The translations under genes were made by a program, and so were the position numbers. The notes beneath the pieces are model-generated. The model was not told where the DNA came from. It did no database searches and saw only the letters and a list, made by a program, of their open reading frames with translations. Below are positions 9,598 to 18,211 of a DNA stretch of 64,000 nt, one piece after another; within the stretch, counting starts at the first letter, position 1; each line of letters starts with the position of its first letter. Location: NCBI RefSeq assembly GCF_038562415.1, contig NZ_JBCFBA010000002.1:82232-146231 (forward strand). The letters are read 5' to 3'. The DNA is from Solidesulfovibrio sp. Its GTDB lineage: Bacteria > Desulfobacterota > Desulfovibrionia > Desulfovibrionales > Desulfovibrionaceae.

Positions 9598-9623
9598 TTG
9601 ACGCAATGTAAAAAATCCTGACA
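9598..9623 (+). promoter_or_regulatory. Putative activator-binding element upstream of the chemoreceptor
   Basis: TTGACGC, two bases, then TGTAAAAAATCCTGACA (9607-9623). The half-sites TGTnA and TnACA form an imperfect dyad. The same element with three base differences lies at 14903-14928, upstream of the second sigma-54 promoter of this block. It ends 61 bases before the -24 box, a normal distance for an enhancer-binding site. Confidence 0.6.
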
Positions 9624-9684
9624 GGGAGCCCGGTCACGATTCGGCCGGGCCTGCCGATTCGTGACGGAAACAGGGCTTGCGATT

Positions 9685-9699
9685 TGGCATGGGCTTTGC
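9685..9699 (+). promoter_or_regulatory. Sigma-54 (-24/-12) promoter of the chemoreceptor operon
   Basis: TGGCATGGGCTTTGC matches the sigma-54 consensus TGGCAC-N5-TTGC with GG and GC correctly spaced. Transcription would begin near 9711, about 100 bases before the chemoreceptor ATG. An NtrC-family activator lies in the same operon. Confidence 0.72.
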
Positions 9700-9812
9700 C
9701 TCCCCGTACCCGGAACCGTTTCGCTCCGGCCGGTCCGCGTCGATCCCGACGAGTCGGGCAAGCGCCGGGGCTCTCGCCTTACGGGAACGCCGTCATCGTC
9801 GTGGGGGGTACT

Positions 9813-11810
9813 ATGCGTGTGCGGGGCAAGTTGTGGCTGTTGTTGGGTGTGTGCGTACTGGGGTTTGCCTGTTCCCTGGCGGCGGACCGGATCGGCGCGC
9901 GCTACGAGGCGCGTTGCCGCGATCTGGAGGGACTTGCCGGCGACGCCTATCTGGAGCTGCTCCAGGCCCGGCGCGAGGAAAAGAACTTCCTGATGCGCCT
10001 GGATCCGTCCTACGTGGAGCCGGCGTTGCGCCACGCCGACAAGGTGCGGCGCGATATCGAAAACCTCGCCGGCCAGGACGCGGCCATGGCCGGCGAGGTC
10101 CGCGACGCCCTGGCCGAACTGGCCGTGTACCGCCGGGGCTTCGAGGAGCTGGTGGCCATCGAGCGGGTCAAGGGCTTCGACGAGCGGCAAGGCCTCATGG
10201 GCGATTTCGTCGCCGCCGCCAGGCAGCTCGACGACAAGTTCAGGCCCGTGACGGACAAGGACTTCCAGATCGAACTGCTCACCGTGCGCCGCCACGAGAA
10301 GAACTGGCAGCTGCGCGACGAGGCCGGCTACGTGGAAAAAGTCGAGGCTTCGGTCGCGCGCCTGCGCGGCATGGTGGCCCACAGCCCCGAGATCCCCGAG
10401 GCCGAAAAAAAGGCCTTCACCGAGGTCATCGACGCCTACCGGCGCAGTTTCGCCGCCTATGTGGAGGCCGCGTCCAAGGGCAAGCGCGTCTGCGAGGCCA
10501 TGGTCGAAAGCGGCCGCGCCCTGATGCCGCGCTTCGAGAAGATCGGCAGATACTACGCCGGCCGCCGGGCCGAGGTGCAAGCCGTGGTGGACGGGGCCAC
10601 CGTCGCCGTCCAGGCCGCCCTGGGCTTGGCCGTGCTTGTGGTCATCGTGTGGATCATCCGGGGCCTGACCGCCTCCCTGGCCGCCCTGGGCGCCTATTCG
10701 CGCACGGTCCGGGCGGGCGACCTGGACGCCCGGCCGGCCGGCCGCTTCGAGGCCGAATTCGCCGTCCTTCGCGACGACATCACGGCCATGGTGGACAACC
10801 TCAAGGAGAAAATGCGCCTGGTGGCGCAAAAGCAGGCCGAGGCCGCCGGGCAGGCCCGGGCGGCCGAGGAGGCCATGGGCGAAACCCGGCGCAAGGAAGA
10901 GGAACTGGCCGCCACCCTGGAGCGCATGCGGGCCGTGGCCGAGCAGGCCGGCGGCATCTCCCGGCGGCTGTCCGGGGCCGCCCAGGAGCTTTCGGCCCAG
11001 ACCGACCAGGCCGCCTCGGGCGTGGCCCTCCAGCGCCGCCGCGTGGACGAGATCGCGGCGGCCATCGGCCAGATGAACGCCACCATCCTGGAGATCGCCG
11101 ACAATGCCGGCGCGGCCGCCCGGATCGCCGGGGAGACCCGCGACGAGGCCGCGATCGGAGCCGAGGTGGTCAGGGGGGCGGCCGCGTCCATGGCCAGGGT
11201 CAACGGCATCGCCGCGGCGCTCAAAAACGACATGTCCAGCCTCGGCCAGGAAGCCCAGTCCATCGGCCAGGTGGTGGGGGTGATCAACGACATCGCCGAC
11301 CAGACCAACCTGCTGGCCTTAAACGCCGCCATCGAGGCGGCAAGGGCCGGCGAGGCCGGGCGCGGCTTCGCCGTGGTGGCCGACGAGGTCCGCAAACTCG
11401 CCGAAAAGACCATGGTGGCCACCAAGGAGGTGGAGGCGCGCATCCGGGCCATCCAGGACGCGGCCGGCGGCAATATCAAGAGCATGGACCAGGCCGTGGC
11501 CGCCGTGGCCGAGGCCAACGGCCTGGCCGACAACTCCGGCCGGGCCATCGCCGCCATCGTCGGCCACGCCGACGCCACCAGCGGCCAGGTCCAGGCCATC
11601 GCCGCCTCGGCCGAGGAGCAGTCCGCCGCCTCGGAACAGATCAGCCGGGCCATCACCGAGATCAACCAGGTGGCCGGGGACAACGTGGCCGGCGTGGACG
11701 CGACCACCCGGGCCGCCCACGACCTGGCCGGCATGGCCGACGAGCTGCAGGCGCTTATCGACCGGTTGCGCGGCGGCCGCGAGGCCGGCCCCCAGGCCCT
11801 GGCGGCCTGA
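9813..11810 (+). CDS. Methyl-accepting chemotaxis protein with HBM-like sensor domain
   Basis: 665 aa transmembrane chemoreceptor. TM1 is about 5-23, a roughly 240-residue all-helical periplasmic domain follows, TM2 is about 265-285, then a HAMP region, a coiled coil and the signalling tip with [20 protein letters not shown] near 490-510. The sensor domain has two similar helical modules each containing a basic-E-KN motif ([10 protein letters not shown] and [10 protein letters not shown]), the pattern of helical bimodular (HBM) sensors, some of which bind organic acids. The ATG at 9813 follows GGGGGG and begins directly before TM1; upstream in-frame starts would add a non-conserved leader. 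It is the first gene behind the sigma-54 promoter at 9685 and is followed by a kinase and regulator. Confidence 0.92.
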
Positions 11811-11943
11811 CCGGTCCCGGGCGCGGCCCGGATGGGGCGTTGCCACGGCCGGTCGCGGCCGGTAAGAAGCGGGTTCGCCGGGACGGTGCCGGCCCGGCCG
11901 CCGGGCCGCCCGCCCACCGCGCCGCCAAGGAGACGCCGCCCCC

Positions 11944-13448
11944 ATGAACGCCGCCGCCAAAAAAGCCCTCGGCCCGGCCGCCCTGGCCCACATGGGCCTT
12001 CGCACCCGGGTCTACCTGCTGCTGGGGGGGCTTTTGCTGGTCAACATGGCCGGGCCGGTCATCATGGTCTGGTACGCCGCCATGGCCCGCGACCTCTACA
12101 CGGCCACGGCCGACAAGGATCTGGCCGCCCTGACCGCCGCCCACGAGCTGGAAAACGCCCTGCTCAACCAGAAGGGCTACGCCACCTATTACTACCTGAG
12201 CCAGGACCAGGCCTGGCTGGTCAAGCTCGACGAGAGCCGCCGGACCTTCCTCCTGTGGCTGGAACGGCTGCGCGACCAGGTGGAGGCGCCCGAGGCCGTT
12301 GCGCTCCTTGACGGCATCGACGCGGCCTACAAGGACTACGCCGAGGCCAAGGACAACGTCATCCGCCTCTACCAGCAGGGCCGGGTGGAGGCGGCCAAGG
12401 GCCAGCACTGGGCCGTGCGCGAGGATTTCGACGGCCTGCGCGAACTGTGCGACCGGTTCAAGGACTTCTTTCGGGCCCGCATGCGCGAGACCGGCCAGGT
12501 CTACCTGGAGCGCACCGACCTGGTCATGGGCGTGGCCGTGCTGGGCGTGGTGATAAACGCCACCCTGGGCTTTTTTCTGGCCTACGTCCTGGTCGGCCAG
12601 ATCCTCGACCCCATCCGCCGCCTGGCCCGGGGGGATCGCGGCAAGGACGCCCTGGCCGGCTTTTCCGACGAGGTCAAGGCCATCGGCCAGAAGTTCCGCG
12701 ACCTGGAAAAGGACGTGGACAAGGCCCACCTGGACCTGGAACAAAGCCGGGGCCACCTCATGCAGTCGGAAAAACTGGCCATGGCCGGACGCCTGGCCGC
12801 CGGCGTGGCCCACACCATCCGCAACCCCTTGACCTCGGTCAAGATGCGGCTTTTCTCCCTGGAGCGCGGCCTCAAGCTCACCCCCTCCCAGCAGGAGGAC
12901 TTCGAGGTCATCGCCGAGGAGATCGGGCATATCGACACCATCGTGCGCAATTTCCTGGAGTTCGCCCGGCCGCCCAAGCTCACGGCCCAGCCCGTGAGCC
13001 TGTCGGCCGTGGTGGACACCACGCTCAATCTCCTCAAGCACCGCCTGGAGTCCTACAACGTCACGGTCTCGGTGGAGCGCGCCCGGGTGCTGCCCGAGAT
13101 CGCCGCCGACCCGGACCAGCTCAAGGAGGCCCTCGTCAACCTGGTGCTCAACGCCTGCGAAGCCATGGTCGAGGGGGGGAGCCTGCGCATCCGCGAGGAG
13201 GTGGGCCTGCTCGAACCCCACGGCCGGGTGCTGGCCCTTCGGGTGACGGACAGCGGCCCGGGCGTGGACCCGGCCCTGCTCGACACCGTCTTCCAGCCCT
13301 TTTTCACCACCAAGGGCGAGGGCTCGGGGCTGGGGCTGGCCATCGTCAAGCGCATCATCGAGGAACACGGCGGCTGGATCACCATCCAGTCCCCGCCCGG
13401 CGGCGGCGCCACCTTTACCATGGTTTTCCCATGCCAGGGGGAGCGGGG

Positions 13449-13464
<16 letters not shown>
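11944..13464 (+). CDS. Sensor histidine kinase with periplasmic helical sensor
   Basis: 506 aa. TM1 about 22-44, helical extracytoplasmic domain about 48-190, TM2 about 193-218, a HAMP-like linker, HisKA with the phospho-acceptor in VAHTIRNPL (His290), then an HATPase domain with the N-box LVLNACEAM, DSGPG and GSGLGLAIV. The residue after the acceptor histidine is threonine rather than the usual acidic residue, which may lower autokinase or phosphatase activity. Its last 16 bases overlap the response-regulator gene, so the two are almost certainly a cognate pair. The overall form resembles the ZraS/AtoS kinases that act on sigma-54 activators. The signal is unknown. Confidence 0.92.
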
Positions 13465-14885
<1,421 letters not shown>

Positions 14886-14902
14886 CTCCCCCTTCCGTCC
14901 GC

Positions 14903-14928
14903 TTGACGCCCTGTAAAAAATGCTGACA
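14903..14928 (+). promoter_or_regulatory. Putative activator-binding element upstream of the receiver gene
   Basis: TTGACGC, two bases, then TGTAAAAAATGCTGACA (14912-14928), the second copy of the element at 9598. It lies just after the regulator gene stop and ends 94 bases before the -24 box at 15023. Confidence 0.6.
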
Positions 14929-15022
14929 TCCCGGCCCGGCCCGTTGGGTCGGGCGGGGTTGTTCGGCTATTTTTTATTCTTTTATTCGAGCATGTTGCCC
15001 ACGGAAGAGGGCGGGCGCGCCT

Positions 15023-15037
15023 TGGCATGGGAGTTGC
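15023..15037 (+). promoter_or_regulatory. Sigma-54 (-24/-12) promoter of the receiver gene
   Basis: TGGCATGGGAGTTGC, with GG and GC at the right spacing. Transcription would start near 15049, leaving a 20-base leader and ruling out the ATG at 14992, which lies upstream, as start of the receiver gene. Confidence 0.72.
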
Positions 15038-15069
15038 GATGGGGGGTGAAAACCTTGCCGGGGGAACAT

Positions 15070-15441
15070 GTGGATCGTCCAAGGGCAACGCTGGTCATCG
15101 CCGAGAGAAACGCCAACATCCGGGAGTTGCTGCGTCGGGAGTTCGGCCGCGAGGGCTATGCCGTGCTGACGGCGGGCTCGGGCGCCGAGGTGCTGTCGCG
15201 CCTGATGCTGGCGGAGCGGGTGGACCTGCTGGTGCTCGACGCCGAGATGGGCGGTCCCGACGGTTCGGCCCTGGCGCCGCGGCTGGCGCGGGAATTCCCG
15301 CGCGTGCAGGTGGTGCTGCACGGCTTCGCCGGCTTCGAGGCCGACCAGGGCGGCGTGGCCCGGGTGGAGAAGGACGGCGACTTCGAGCGCCTCAAGCGCA
15401 CGGTGGGCGACATGCTGCGGCCGCAGGGCGGCAACGGCTGA
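15070..15441 (+). CDS. Stand-alone receiver-domain protein with degenerate acidic pocket
   Basis: 123 aa CheY-like protein. The presumed phospho-acceptor is Asp57 (LLVLDAEMGG) and the conserved lysine is in RVEKDGD near 102. The acidic pair near the N-terminus is reduced to a single glutamate (AERN), and the T/S switch residue is replaced (VVLHGF). Phosphorylation is thus possible but atypical. The GTG at 15070 was chosen because GGGGGAA precedes it and because the sigma-54 promoter ends just upstream. It probably works with the kinase and chemoreceptor upstream, for example as a phosphate sink or a motor/adaptor effector; this is inference. Confidence 0.75.
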   Translation: MDRPRATLVIAERNANIRELLRREFGREGYAVLTAGSGAEVLSRLMLAERVDLLVLDAEMGGPDGSALAPRLAREFPRVQVVLHGFAGFEADQGGVARVEKDGDFERLKRTVGDMLRPQGGNG

Positions 15442-15538: not shown

Positions 15539-16798
15539 ATGGGGTTCGGTAGGCAAGTCTTTGAGTTCCTGAAGGCGGCGTCGGTCGCCCATGCCCAGTG
15601 GGACATGGAAGTCTCCACGTCCATTCTCAAAAACCGCAAGAAACTGCTGGTCCTGTTGGTCCTGGCCCTGCCCATCCTGGCGGTGTCCTTTGTCGAGGCG
15701 GGCGACTTCATCGGCAGCAAGACCGCCTACGGCCCGGCCTTTTACACCACGCAAATTTTCCTGGTCTCCATCGCCGTGGGCCTGGCCGCCGGGCTGATCA
15801 CCGGCTGCATCGGCGCCGGCGGCGGCTTCATCATCACCCCGGCGCTCATGGCCGCCGGCGTCAAGGGCATCCTGGCCGTGGGCACGGACCTCTTCCACAT
15901 CTTCGCCAAGGCCATCATGGGCACGGCCGTGCACAAAAAGCTCGGCAACGTCTCGGTGAAACTGGCCATCGCCTTCCTGATCGGCTCCGGCGCCGGCACC
16001 TTCGTCGGCGGCGCCATCAACAAGGGCCTCTACAACAAGGACCCGCTGCTCTCCGAGTTCTTCATCAGCACCATCTACGCGGTCCTGCTCGGTTTCCTGG
16101 GCTTTTACGCGCTGATCGACTACATCGTGGCCAGCCGCAAGGCTTCCGGCGACGACGCCCACGGCGGCAGCCACGGCGGCCCGGCCGGCACCACCGGCAT
16201 GGCGCTCAAGCTCCAGAACCTCAACATCGCCCCCATGATCACCTTCGACGAGGACTTCGTGCCCGGCGGCAAGCGCATCTCCGGCTGGATCGTGGCCGCC
16301 GGCGGCGTGATCGTCGGCATCCTGGCCGCGCTTATGGGCGTGGGCGGCGGCTTCGTCACCTTCCCCATGTTCGTCTACGTCTTCGGTGTGTCCTCCATGA
16401 CCACCGTGGGCACGGACATCCTCCAGATCATCTTCACCGCCGGCCTCGGCGCCATCGCCCAGTACGCCATCTACGGCTACGTCTTCTACACCCTGGCCAT
16501 GGGCATGCTGTTGGGCTCGCTGCTGGGCATCCAGGTCGGCGCGCTGACCACCAAGGTGGTCAAGGGCATCCACATCCGCGGTTTCTACGCCATGTCCATC
16601 ATCGCCGGCTTCATCAACCGCGTGGCGACCTTGCCGAAAAAGTTCGTGGAACTGGAATACATCAACATGTCCAAGGACATGGTCAACGCCATCGAATACG
16701 TGGGCAACATCGTGTTCTGGATCGTGGTGGCCATCTTCGGCGCCTGGGTCATCGGCAAGTTCATCGTCAACATCGGCGTCCTGCGCCAGGAGGGGTAA
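15539..16798 (+). CDS. TauE/SafE-family anion transporter
   Basis: 419 aa inner-membrane protein with about eight to nine hydrophobic helices arranged as two homologous halves, each with a glycine-rich motif (GCIGAGGGFIITPAL and LMGVGGGFVTFPMF) and each followed by the GTDL/GTDI repeat signature typical of TauE/SafE (sulfite, sulfonate or sulfate) permeases. A cytoplasmic His/Gly-rich loop lies near residues 205-225. In sulfate reducers such proteins are among the candidate sulfate or sulfite carriers. ACGGAGG precedes the ATG at 15539. A four-base gap links it to the following membrane protein, suggesting a two-component transporter. Confidence 0.88.
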   Translation: MGFGRQVFEFLKAASVAHAQWDMEVSTSILKNRKKLLVLLVLALPILAVSFVEAGDFIGSKTAYGPAFYTTQIFLVSIAVGLAAGLITGCIGAGGGFIITPALMAAGVKGILAVGTDLFHIFAKAIMGTAVHKKLGNVSVKLAIAFLIGSGAGTFVGGAINKGLYNKDPLLSEFFISTIYAVLLGFLGFYALIDYIVASRKASGDDAHGGSHGGPAGTTGMALKLQNLNIAPMITFDEDFVPGGKRISGWIVAAGGVIVGILAALMGVGGGFVTFPMFVYVFGVSSMTTVGTDILQIIFTAGLGAIAQYAIYGYVFYTLAMGMLLGSLLGIQVGALTTKVVKGIHIRGFYAMSIIAGFINRVATLPKKFVELEYINMSKDMVNAIEYVGNIVFWIVVAIFGAWVIGKFIVNIGVLRQEG

Positions 16799-16802
16799 GG
16801 AT

Positions 16803-17516
16803 ATGCTCGTTACCGATAAGAAACTGTTCATCAAGGGCATGCTGCTCCTGGTGTCCTTCGCCGTGGTCTTCATGCTGATCTTCTCGCCGATCTTCCCCGG
16901 CGGGGTCAACGGACTGCACTTCTCCGACGACCTGTTCAACAAGCTGTCCAAGGGGTCGTCCTACTTCATTCCCGAGGTGGCCAAGAACGTGAAGGCCTTC
17001 GACGGCAAGCAGATCAACGTCGAAGTGAAGTTCAAGACCCCCGAAGACACGAAAATGGCCCAGACGCTCATCACCAAGGTCGGCGGCAAGGCCGAGCCCC
17101 AGGGCGATTCCCTGGCCATAAGCGGCGACCTCGGCGCCATGCTGACCAAGGTCCTGGAAGGGGCCGACGAGCTGTACAAGGACCAGGACGCCCAAATCCA
17201 GGCTTTTTACGGCATGGACGGCAAGAAGGCCATGAAGGGCTGGTGGACGACGCTTTCCACCATGATCAAGCCCCTGCAGAAGGTCAAGCAGATCGATGAG
17301 GCCAACATCCTCAACACGGTCAACCAGAAGGCCATCGAGCCGGCCTACAACTTCTACGGCATCCCGGCGGAAAGCATCATGACCAAGATCCCCACCGTCG
17401 CCGGCCTGCTCATCTTCTACGTCATCTATACCATGTGGTACGGCTACGGCATTTTCGACATCTTCAACGGCATCGGCATGTCCATGAGCAAGTCCAAGAT
17501 CAAGAAGGAAGCGTAA
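16803..17516 (+). CDS. Membrane partner of the TauE-like transporter, unknown family
   Basis: 237 aa. One membrane helix near the N-terminus (about 9-28), an extracytoplasmic domain of about 160 residues with a lysine-rich mixed alpha/beta character, and a second helix near the C-terminus (about 196-216) followed by a short basic tail. No enzyme motif is visible. It starts four bases after the transporter stop behind AGGAGGGG/AAGGAT and ends at a strong terminator, so the two genes form a closed operon. An accessory or periplasmic substrate-handling subunit is the natural guess, without direct proof. Confidence 0.75.
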   Translation: MLVTDKKLFIKGMLLLVSFAVVFMLIFSPIFPGGVNGLHFSDDLFNKLSKGSSYFIPEVAKNVKAFDGKQINVEVKFKTPEDTKMAQTLITKVGGKAEPQGDSLAISGDLGAMLTKVLEGADELYKDQDAQIQAFYGMDGKKAMKGWWTTLSTMIKPLQKVKQIDEANILNTVNQKAIEPAYNFYGIPAESIMTKIPTVAGLLIFYVIYTMWYGYGIFDIFNGIGMSMSKSKIKKEA

Positions 17517-17605: not shown

Positions 17606-18004
17606 CTATTCGATGACGCCGAGGTTTTTGAGCAGATGCAGCAGCATGTGCTTGTCGATGGGCTTGGGCACGTAGGAGGTGGCGCCGCCCTTGTAGTAGG
17701 CCTCCACCACGTTTTTCGGGTCGTCCAGGGCCGTGGTCATGATGACCTTGGCTTCGCTGGCGGGCGCGATGCCGCGTTCCTTCTCGATGGCCCGGATGGC
17801 CCGAAGCGCCGTCTGGCCGTCCATCTCCGGCATCATGATGTCCATGCAGATCAGGTCGTAGGGGTTGTCGTCATTGAGGGACTGGCCAAAGGCCTCGACC
17901 GCCTCGCGCCCGTTGACCGCGATGTCGACCTCGCCGTAGGGGCCGAGAATCTTCTGGAGAATCTTGCGGCTGGTGAAATCGTCTTCGACAACGAGCACGC
18001 GCAT
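17606..18004 (-). CDS. CheY-like single-domain response regulator
   Basis: 132 aa receiver domain with every canonical residue: EDD at 7-9, Asp55 in CMDIMMPEMDG, TTA switch region and PKP lysine near 112. No output domain. It is convergent with the TauE operon and divergent from the HD-hydrolase operon. GGGAGG precedes the ATG at 18004, and the longer in-frame start would add a non-conserved leader. Sequence style (ICMDIMMPEMDGQTALRAIR) is that of the receiver proteins often paired with hybrid kinases; the cognate kinase is not visible nearby. Confidence 0.9.
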   Translation of the reverse strand: MRVLVVEDDFTSRKILQKILGPYGEVDIAVNGREAVEAFGQSLNDDNPYDLICMDIMMPEMDGQTALRAIRAIEKERGIAPASEAKVIMTTALDDPKNVVEAYYKGGATSYVPKPIDKHMLLHLLKNLGVIE

Positions 18005-18211
18005 CGACGCCTCCCAGGGACTGGCGATTCCCCGCGCCGGAGACGGACCGGGGAAGGGGCACCGGCGGTCCATGGCCGAGTCCCCGGATTTCTTCTAGGC
18101 GCAAGCCCTGAAAAAGGCAATGCGCGGGCGTCGTCCGGGGTGGCATCTTGCAAGGCGGCCCAAAGCCGCGTAACGAAGGCGCGATGCGCGCACGGCGCCA
18201 AGGGAGCGAGC

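What the first reader, a model, noticed from the sequence alone, without database searches (positions are those of the whole stretch)
9598..15441. Self-contained sigma-54 sensory regulon bracketed by a duplicated upstream element
Two near-perfect -24/-12 promoters (TGGCATGGGCTTTGC at 9685, TGGCATGGGAGTTGC at 15023) precede the chemoreceptor and the lone receiver gene. Upstream of each lies the same element: TTGACGC, two bases, then TGTAAAAAATNCTGACA (9598-9623 and 14903-14928), with an imperfect TGTnA/TnACA dyad. Between them are a kinase and an NtrC-type activator with intact GAFTGA. The simplest reading is that the activator binds both elements and controls the chemoreceptor-kinase-activator operon and the receiver, giving an autoregulated chemosensory circuit. 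Chemoreceptors are normally read through alternative sigma factors or constitutively; a dedicated NtrC-type switch with an adjacent receiver is unusual.
Basis: partly seen in the sequence, partly recalled or inferred. Interest (0 to 1): 0.75.

Follow-up and report, generated by a model that had tools for sequence, protein, structure and literature searches.

The report
Sigma-54 switch for a sulfur-transporter operon
In a sulfate-reducing bacterium, one sensor kinase and one activator very probably switch on two neighbouring gene sets through the same DNA tag: an old, widely conserved membrane-transporter set and, in this genus, a chemoreceptor set that carries the switch's own genes.

Summary
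In detail: both 26-bp elements and both -24/-12 promoters are where stated, and no third element with up to 3 mismatches exists in the 5.07-Mb assembly. The reading needs correcting. The 'lone receiver' is the first gene of a separate unit that runs on into a TauE/SafE (TSUP) permease and a 237-aa membrane protein (P237) of no known family. With a matrix that leaves out the tested genus, the element precedes the permease operon in 73 of 75 genomes that hold the activator's ortholog (65 with a sigma-54 site 87-122 bp on), and in 1 of 22 that lack it, an incomplete assembly. It stays there when kinase and activator lie 0.1-1.2 Mb away. The chemoreceptor unit was found only in Solidesulfovibrio. 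So this is a two-component sigma-54 switch for a permease that goes with dissimilatory sulfite reductase (68 of 72 genomes), to which one genus added a chemoreceptor; not primarily a chemosensory circuit. The receiver is degenerate in 38 of 39 aligned sequences. Similar TSUP regulons are published for D. vulgaris; I could not match this one to a published regulator. Signal and substrate are inferred.

The parts
9598..9623 (+). upstream activating element 1 (TTKACR-n3-YGTAAAnAAnnCTGACA type), 78 bp from the start of its TGTAAA core to the -24 box
9685..9699 (+). sigma-54 promoter TGGCATGGGCTTTGC before the chemoreceptor
9813..11810 (+). methyl-accepting chemotaxis protein (MCPsignal E 3e-42; HAMP below its curated cut-off)
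   Evidence: ortholog at 58% or more found only in the genus
11944..13464 (+). sensor histidine kinase with CHASE3-type sensor; H-box HTIRNPL
13452..14885 (+). NtrC-type activator: receiver, AAA+ with GAFTGA, Fis-type HTH
14903..14928 (+). upstream activating element 2, 111 bp from the start of its TGTAAA core to the -24 box
14947..14968 (+). terminator-like hairpin followed by a T-rich tail, between the two transcription units
15023..15037 (+). sigma-54 promoter TGGCATGGGAGTTGC before the permease operon
15070..15441 (+). 123-aa degenerate receiver (GTG start); E-R-N where the activator's receiver has D-D-D
15539..16798 (+). TauE/SafE (TSUP) permease, 419 aa
   Evidence: PF01925, E 6.7e-36
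16803..17516 (+). P237: 237-aa protein with a hydrophobic helix at each end, no Pfam or NCBIfam hit, no PDB fold match at E up to 0.001

Best explanation
A membrane sensor kinase phosphorylates the NtrC-type activator, which binds the 26-bp element about 80-120 bp before two -24/-12 promoters and lets sigma-54 polymerase fire. One promoter drives pseudoreceiver - TSUP permease - P237, the ancestral and conserved output. The other, in Solidesulfovibrio only as far as I found, drives chemoreceptor - kinase - activator, which adds positive autoregulation and a taxis output to the same signal. Shown by sequence and comparison: the elements, the promoter sites, the genes, the tie of element to activator, and the chemoreceptor's restriction in the genomes searched. 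Inferred: binding itself, the kinase-activator pairing, co-transcription of chemoreceptor, kinase and activator, and that permease plus P237 move a sulfur oxyanion such as sulfite made or met during sulfate respiration.
For: Leave-one-genus-out matrix over 4.6 kb upstream of the permease (less where the contig ends): 74 of 75 activator genomes score 10.0 or more and 73 score 12 or more, against 21 of 22 activator-free genomes at 7.6 or less; the one high activator-free genome, G145, is 75% complete and its genus-mates have the activator. Of the 73, 65 have a sigma-54 site within 1 mismatch 87-122 bp on, 55 of them perfect. Simpler count with 3 mismatches: 63 of 77 permease operons against 1 of 23; reversed control 0 of 77 and 1 of 23. 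Unlinked on one contig, element kept: G069, G088, G061. All 71 activator genomes of a 149-genome sample hold P237; 24 of the other 78 do. Chemoreceptor promoters carry the element within 3 mismatches in 12 of 13 Solidesulfovibrio genomes, and a diverged one in the thirteenth. Core of the HTH kept in 61 orthologs; GAFTGA in 62 of 62 loci. TauE directly before P237 in 49 of 49 named loci with room; P237 goes with dsrA in 68 of 72 genomes.
Against: No binding, transcription or transport was measured. Genomes are related, so counts are not independent, and score limits were set after seeing the scores. In G022 the best score is only 8.5 with no sigma-54 site near (67% complete, 2.5 kb upstream). 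In 7 of 7 activator genomes of genus g38 the element lies 353-356 bp from the sigma-54 site, not about 110, and in G120 the best site lies 135 bp away. Only 4 of 13 chemoreceptor promoters are perfect -24/-12 sites; 9 differ by one base. 76 of 225 genomes without P237 have dsrA, so the permease is not needed for sulfite reduction. The kinase H-box has T or S after the histidine in all 59 loci where it was found of 62, so kinase activity is assumed. A 133-bp gap separates chemoreceptor from kinase, so they may not share a transcript.
Confidence: 0.8

Rival explanations
1. One reading: an autoregulated chemosensory circuit in which chemoreceptor, kinase, activator and receiver form one signalling pathway and the receiver is its effector.
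For: In this genus all four genes are adjacent, and the chemoreceptor has its own element.
Against: The chemoreceptor ortholog was not found outside Solidesulfovibrio in the 149-genome sample; MCP-like genes lie near the kinase-activator or the permease in G009, G118, G061 and G122, but match at 40-44% and mainly over the signalling domain. The receiver is degenerate and heads a permease operon.
Confidence: 0.08
2. Another NtrC-type protein binds the element and the adjacent activator is a bystander, or paralogs cross-regulate as published for DVU0539 and DVU0946.
For: The genome has paralogs at 43-48% identity; shared binding sites of paralogs are published for D. vulgaris (PMC3333781, passages).
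Against: The element follows this ortholog group and is missing where the group is missing; the two paralogs read here have different residues in the HTH region.
Confidence: 0.08
3. This is simply the published DVU0110/DVUA0057 regulon controlling the D. vulgaris TSUP operon DVU0132-DVU0133.
For: Same kind of target, TGT/ACA motif class, and the published motif was seen also in D. magneticus, a member of this genus (PMC4641369, sections 6 and 20).
Against: On the N. vulgaris RCH1 plasmid, 3 of 5 upstream regions examined, before genes that I take by order to be DVUA0057 targets or neighbours, hold TGTCGGA...TKACA sites; none holds YGTAAA...CTGACA within 4 mismatches. The published logo and the D. 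vulgaris chromosome could not be read.
Confidence: 0.1

Closest known systems
D. vulgaris permease regulons under NtrC-type response regulators (DVU0110, DVUA0057, DVU0118, DVU0539, DVU0946; PMC3333781, PMC4641369)
   Same: Two-component sigma-54 activator, TGT/ACA half-site element, permease operon as target, in some cases autoregulation
   Different: Sites I read as DVUA0057-type have TGTCGGA on the left. Correspondence to DVU0118, DVU0539 or DVU0946 could not be tested: D. vulgaris Hildenborough is not among the 287 family genomes held. A chemoreceptor-kinase-activator unit or pseudoreceiver of this kind is not mentioned in the passages and sections I read.
PrsK/PrsR of the PEP-CTERM system (PMC1569441, passages)
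   Same: Kinase plus NtrC-type regulator with a 17-nt motif upstream of a sigma-54 site
   Different: Activator is below the TIGR02915 cut-off (425.8 against 502.6 bits); different targets
TauE/SafE sulfite and organosulfonate exporters (TSUP family)
   Same: PF01925 match
   Different: Followed by P237 in every named locus with room (49 of 49); tied to dsr-bearing organisms; substrate unknown; no PDB sequence relative at E up to 0.1

Membership tests
sigma-54-dependent NtrC-type response regulator | AAA+ domain with GAFTGA and Walker A, receiver, Fis-type HTH | tested here: met
sigma-54 promoter | TGGCAY-N5-TTGC at both units, conserved in relatives | tested here: met
   among 13 relatives' chemoreceptor promoters (window included) 4 are perfect and 9 differ by one base
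sigma-54 promoter | transcription dependent on rpoN | not testable with these tools
   needs mutants
TSUP (TauE/SafE) permease | PF01925 above gathering score | tested here: met
   124.6 against 32.6 bits
TSUP (TauE/SafE) permease | export of sulfite or sulfonate | not testable with these tools
   no assay
phosphorylatable receiver (15070-15441) | acidic residues near the N-terminus that bind Mg with the acceptor Asp (recalled definition) | tested here: not met
   D/E-R-N instead of D-D-D in 38 of 39 aligned; the exception is an ordinary receiver picked up from G036
chemoreceptor | MCP signalling domain | tested here: met
PrsR (PEP-CTERM) regulator | TIGR02915 curated cut-off | tested here: not met
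DVU0110/DVUA0057 regulon | shared published binding motif | tested here: inconclusive
   differs from sites I read as DVUA0057 targets; published logo not readable
DVU0118, DVU0539 or DVU0946 regulon | orthology and motif | not tested
   D. vulgaris Hildenborough not held; supplements and figures not readable

The most novel reading that the evidence does not exclude
TSUP permease plus P237 form a previously undescribed two-protein sulfur-oxyanion transporter of sulfite-reducing microbes, kept under a dedicated sigma-54 switch with a phosphorylation-dead receiver as built-in feedback, and in Solidesulfovibrio the switch captured a chemoreceptor so that cells couple transporter induction to taxis for the same compound.
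Probability: 0.3. Interest if true: 0.62.

Novelty: new variant of a known kind. Interest (0 to 1): 0.42.

Why it matters
How sulfate reducers move sulfite and related ions is open: a published survey found TSUP proteins in all 44 sulfate-reducer genomes it examined and could not assign their function (PMC5840216, passages). This work ties one TSUP subfamily to a constant partner with no known fold match, to dsr-bearing genomes, and to a specific kinase-activator-element switch, so its inducer can be sought with a promoter reporter. It also shows how a chemoreceptor can be drawn into an existing metabolic regulon by gaining an element and a promoter.

Tried and rejected
Rejected: the receiver as the end of the system (its operon runs on into the permease and P237). 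Rejected: my first frame for the receiver, 15069; the right start is GTG 15070. Rejected: the element as a genome-wide repeat. Put aside as undecided: identity with the PEP-CTERM/DVUA0057 motif.

One search, run for the check, gives 73 of 75 for the element (score 12 or more) and 65 of 75 for element plus sigma-54 site at 87-122 bp; I lowered the main confidence from 0.82 to 0.80 and raised the first rival from 0.07 to 0.08.

Led nowhere: finding D. vulgaris Hildenborough among the held genomes through its flavodoxin (7 genomes of G009's genus, best 64%; 287 genomes of the family, best 67%); solved relatives of the permease (none); PDB fold matches for P237 (458 matches at E up to 10, 0 at E up to 0.001); the own-genome paralog loci as a clue to DVU0539/DVU0946 (undecided); paper searches for this block (listings).

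Rows dropped or treated apart: G145 (75% complete) kept in the counts; G055 (contig edge, 2 bases upstream) in the 23 but not in the 22; G007 (weak P237 hit) not mapped; G148 and G016 have a second permease operon without an element, counted in the 77; four named loci cut at the contig edge (L207, L221, L223, L224) left out of the 49. In one search the script's printed counts for acceptor Asp, Thr and Lys used wrong indices and are not used.
Full report
Observation. The two elements and two promoters are at the stated places. In the 5,069,250-base assembly the 26-bp pattern with up to 3 mismatches occurs only at these two places, both exact, and never reversed. A looser 17-bp core gives 22 sites against 11 for the reversed control. 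Of the 12 examined, only the two window sites are followed within 400 bp by a sigma-54 site at 0-1 mismatch; 10 weaker sites were not examined. A matrix made from 38 elements outside this genus gives both window elements 35.1; the next site in the window scores 10.5 and the highest maximum of 20 base shuffles is 16.1.

Genes. Pfam gives a chemoreceptor, a kinase with a CHASE3 sensor, an NtrC-type activator and a TauE/SafE permease. The receiver begins at GTG 15070 and reaches the receiver model at E 1e-9. The 237-aa protein P237 matches no Pfam or NCBIfam family. A terminator-like hairpin with a T-rich tail at 14947-14968 lies between element 2 and its promoter. I therefore read two units: chemoreceptor-kinase-activator, and receiver-permease-P237.

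Where the window comes from. The genus is therefore Solidesulfovibrio, family Desulfovibrionaceae.

What the element goes with. In a 149-genome sample of the family the 26-bp pattern (up to 3 mismatches) occurs in 30; by hand comparison it lies at this block in 27 of the 30, and elsewhere in G021, G010 and G051. The activator ortholog is sharply separated from paralogs: the weakest hit I count is E 7e-138, the next is 5e-125 at 48% identity (at most 10 candidates per genome were scored). It is in 71 of 149 genomes, all of which hold P237; P237 is in 24 of the other 78. I mapped 100 permease-P237 operons, four more Solidesulfovibrio genomes included. The 17-bp core (up to 3 mismatches) lies within 3.6 kb upstream of the permease in 63 of 77 operons from activator genomes and 1 of 23 from others, with 0 of 77 and 1 of 23 for the reversed pattern. 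For the check I repeated this with a 25-bp matrix built each time without the tested genus. Of 75 activator genomes 74 score 10.0 or more and 73 score 12 or more; 65 of these have a sigma-54 site within 1 mismatch 87-122 bp on, 55 of them perfect. Of 22 activator-free genomes 21 score 7.6 or less; the other, G145 (29.1), is a 75%-complete assembly of a genus whose other sampled members have the activator. Against a simple rule: G022 scores 8.5 (67% complete), all seven activator genomes of genus g38 have the element 353-356 bp from the sigma-54 site, and in G120 the best site is 135 bp away. Genomes are related and score limits were set after the fact. The tie holds where kinase and activator lie far off on the same contig: about 1.2 Mb in G069, 0.12 Mb in G088, 0.15 Mb in G061.

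Shape of the element. Over 52 sites (some operons give two) the consensus is TTKACR-n3-YGTAAAnAAnnCTGACR: three half-sites, the last two forming TGT-N11-ACA. Distances from core to -24 box fall into groups at 87-93, 101-102, 109-116 and 122 bp before the permease and 78-79, 88-89 and 102 bp before the chemoreceptor, in steps of about one helical turn. Most are in the 109-114 group, so phasing is only suggested. The HTH core is nearly constant among 61 orthologs and differs in the two own-genome paralogs read.

The chemoreceptor. Its sensor half at 58% identity or more is in 13 of 14 Solidesulfovibrio genomes; the fourteenth is 69% complete. In the 149-genome sample no listed hit outside the genus exceeds 40%, and the best full-length hit is 35%. 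Twelve of 13 chemoreceptor promoters carry the element within 3 mismatches and a sigma-54 site within 1 mismatch; the thirteenth, G097, has a diverged element at the right distance and a one-mismatch site. Only four of the 13 promoter sites are perfect. Of 61 kinase-activator loci 48 are outside the genus; three of these lacked upstream sequence, and in the other 45 (in G019 measured from the activator) 700 bp upstream held no element with a sigma-54 site; there is one 3-mismatch core in G031 and one lone sigma-54 site in G051. Autoregulation is thus suggested only here, and only if chemoreceptor, kinase and activator share a transcript.

The receiver. In 38 of 39 aligned sequences the run that is D-D-D in the activator's own receiver reads D/E-R-N; the exception is an ordinary receiver of G036 that the search picked up. 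The printed alignment shows H in place of Thr in most rows and the acceptor Asp lost in three. I read it as a pseudoreceiver, perhaps a feedback partner of kinase or activator; that is inference.

The output. TauE lies directly before P237 in 49 of 49 named loci with room, from Desulfovibrionaceae, other Desulfobacterota, Nitrospirae-labelled and Firmicutes records. In 297 genomes of the phylum P237 is in 72 and dsrA in 144; 68 of the 72 have dsrA, the four without are 62-80% complete, and 76 of the 225 without P237 also have dsrA. P237 is modelled well (pLDDT 89, pTM 0.73), with a long hydrophobic helix at each end and a mixed domain between, and has no PDB match at E up to 0.001. A sulfur oxyanion is the natural guess for the substrate, from the family and the dsr tie; nothing here shows it. 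Outside the family, elements with a sigma-54 site within 1 mismatch precede the permease in L189, L191, L199, L204 and L206, and L189 also has an activator at 66%.

Known work. I read PMC4641369 in its abstract, sections 5, 6, 7, 12 and 20 and passages and PMC3333781 in passages and section 23. They describe 37 enhancer-binding proteins in D. vulgaris, nine sigma-54 operons for TSUP or PSE permeases, TGT/ACA motifs with 9, 11 or 12 bp between, and a network figure whose legend lists MCP. PMC10102598 (passages) reports molybdate fitness phenotypes for the DVU0539-DVU0545 cluster, which includes a PSE transporter. The DVU0110/DVUA0057 motif was the nearest candidate; on the RCH1 plasmid 3 of 5 upstream regions before genes that I take, by order, for DVUA0057 targets or neighbours hold TGTCGGA...TKACA sites, so the left half differs. 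DVU0118, DVU0539 and DVU0946 could not be compared because the genome is not held and figures and supplements cannot be read. The block may therefore be an ortholog of a published regulon; I saw no description of it in the listings or in the passages read.

Verdict. A well-supported, conserved two-component sigma-54 regulon whose core output is a dsr-associated TSUP permease with a constant partner of unknown function; the chemoreceptor is a genus-level addition. The kind is known; the combination, the pseudoreceiver and P237 are the new parts.

Noticed in passing
window 17606-18073 (-): A second, convergent receiver gene behind P237 is conserved at about 81-91% in Solidesulfovibrio and genus g41 loci.
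   Followed up: no
window 11944-13464: The kinase H-box reads H-T/S-I/V-RNPL in all 59 loci where it was found, of 62 searched; the acidic residue usual after the histidine (recalled) is missing.
   Followed up: partly
L185, L198, L203: Permeases in three Nitrospirae-labelled records are 76-78% identical to the window's while their P237 is 39-44% identical, which suggests different constraints or gene transfer.
   Followed up: no
L115 4577 (G021), L118 15383 (G051), L119 15161 (G010): A second element lies before other kinase/receiver clusters in three genomes, so the regulon may be larger there.
   Followed up: partly
L092, L093, L171: Three genus g28 genomes have two elements, each with its own sigma-54 site, before the permease operon.
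   Followed up: no
L147, L170, L230-L234: In genus g38 the element lies 353-356 bp from the sigma-54 site instead of about 90-115.
   Followed up: no
L134-L136, L139: Genomes without the activator still have a sigma-54 site about 3 kb before a kinase-receiver-permease-P237 run, so another activator may act there.
   Followed up: no
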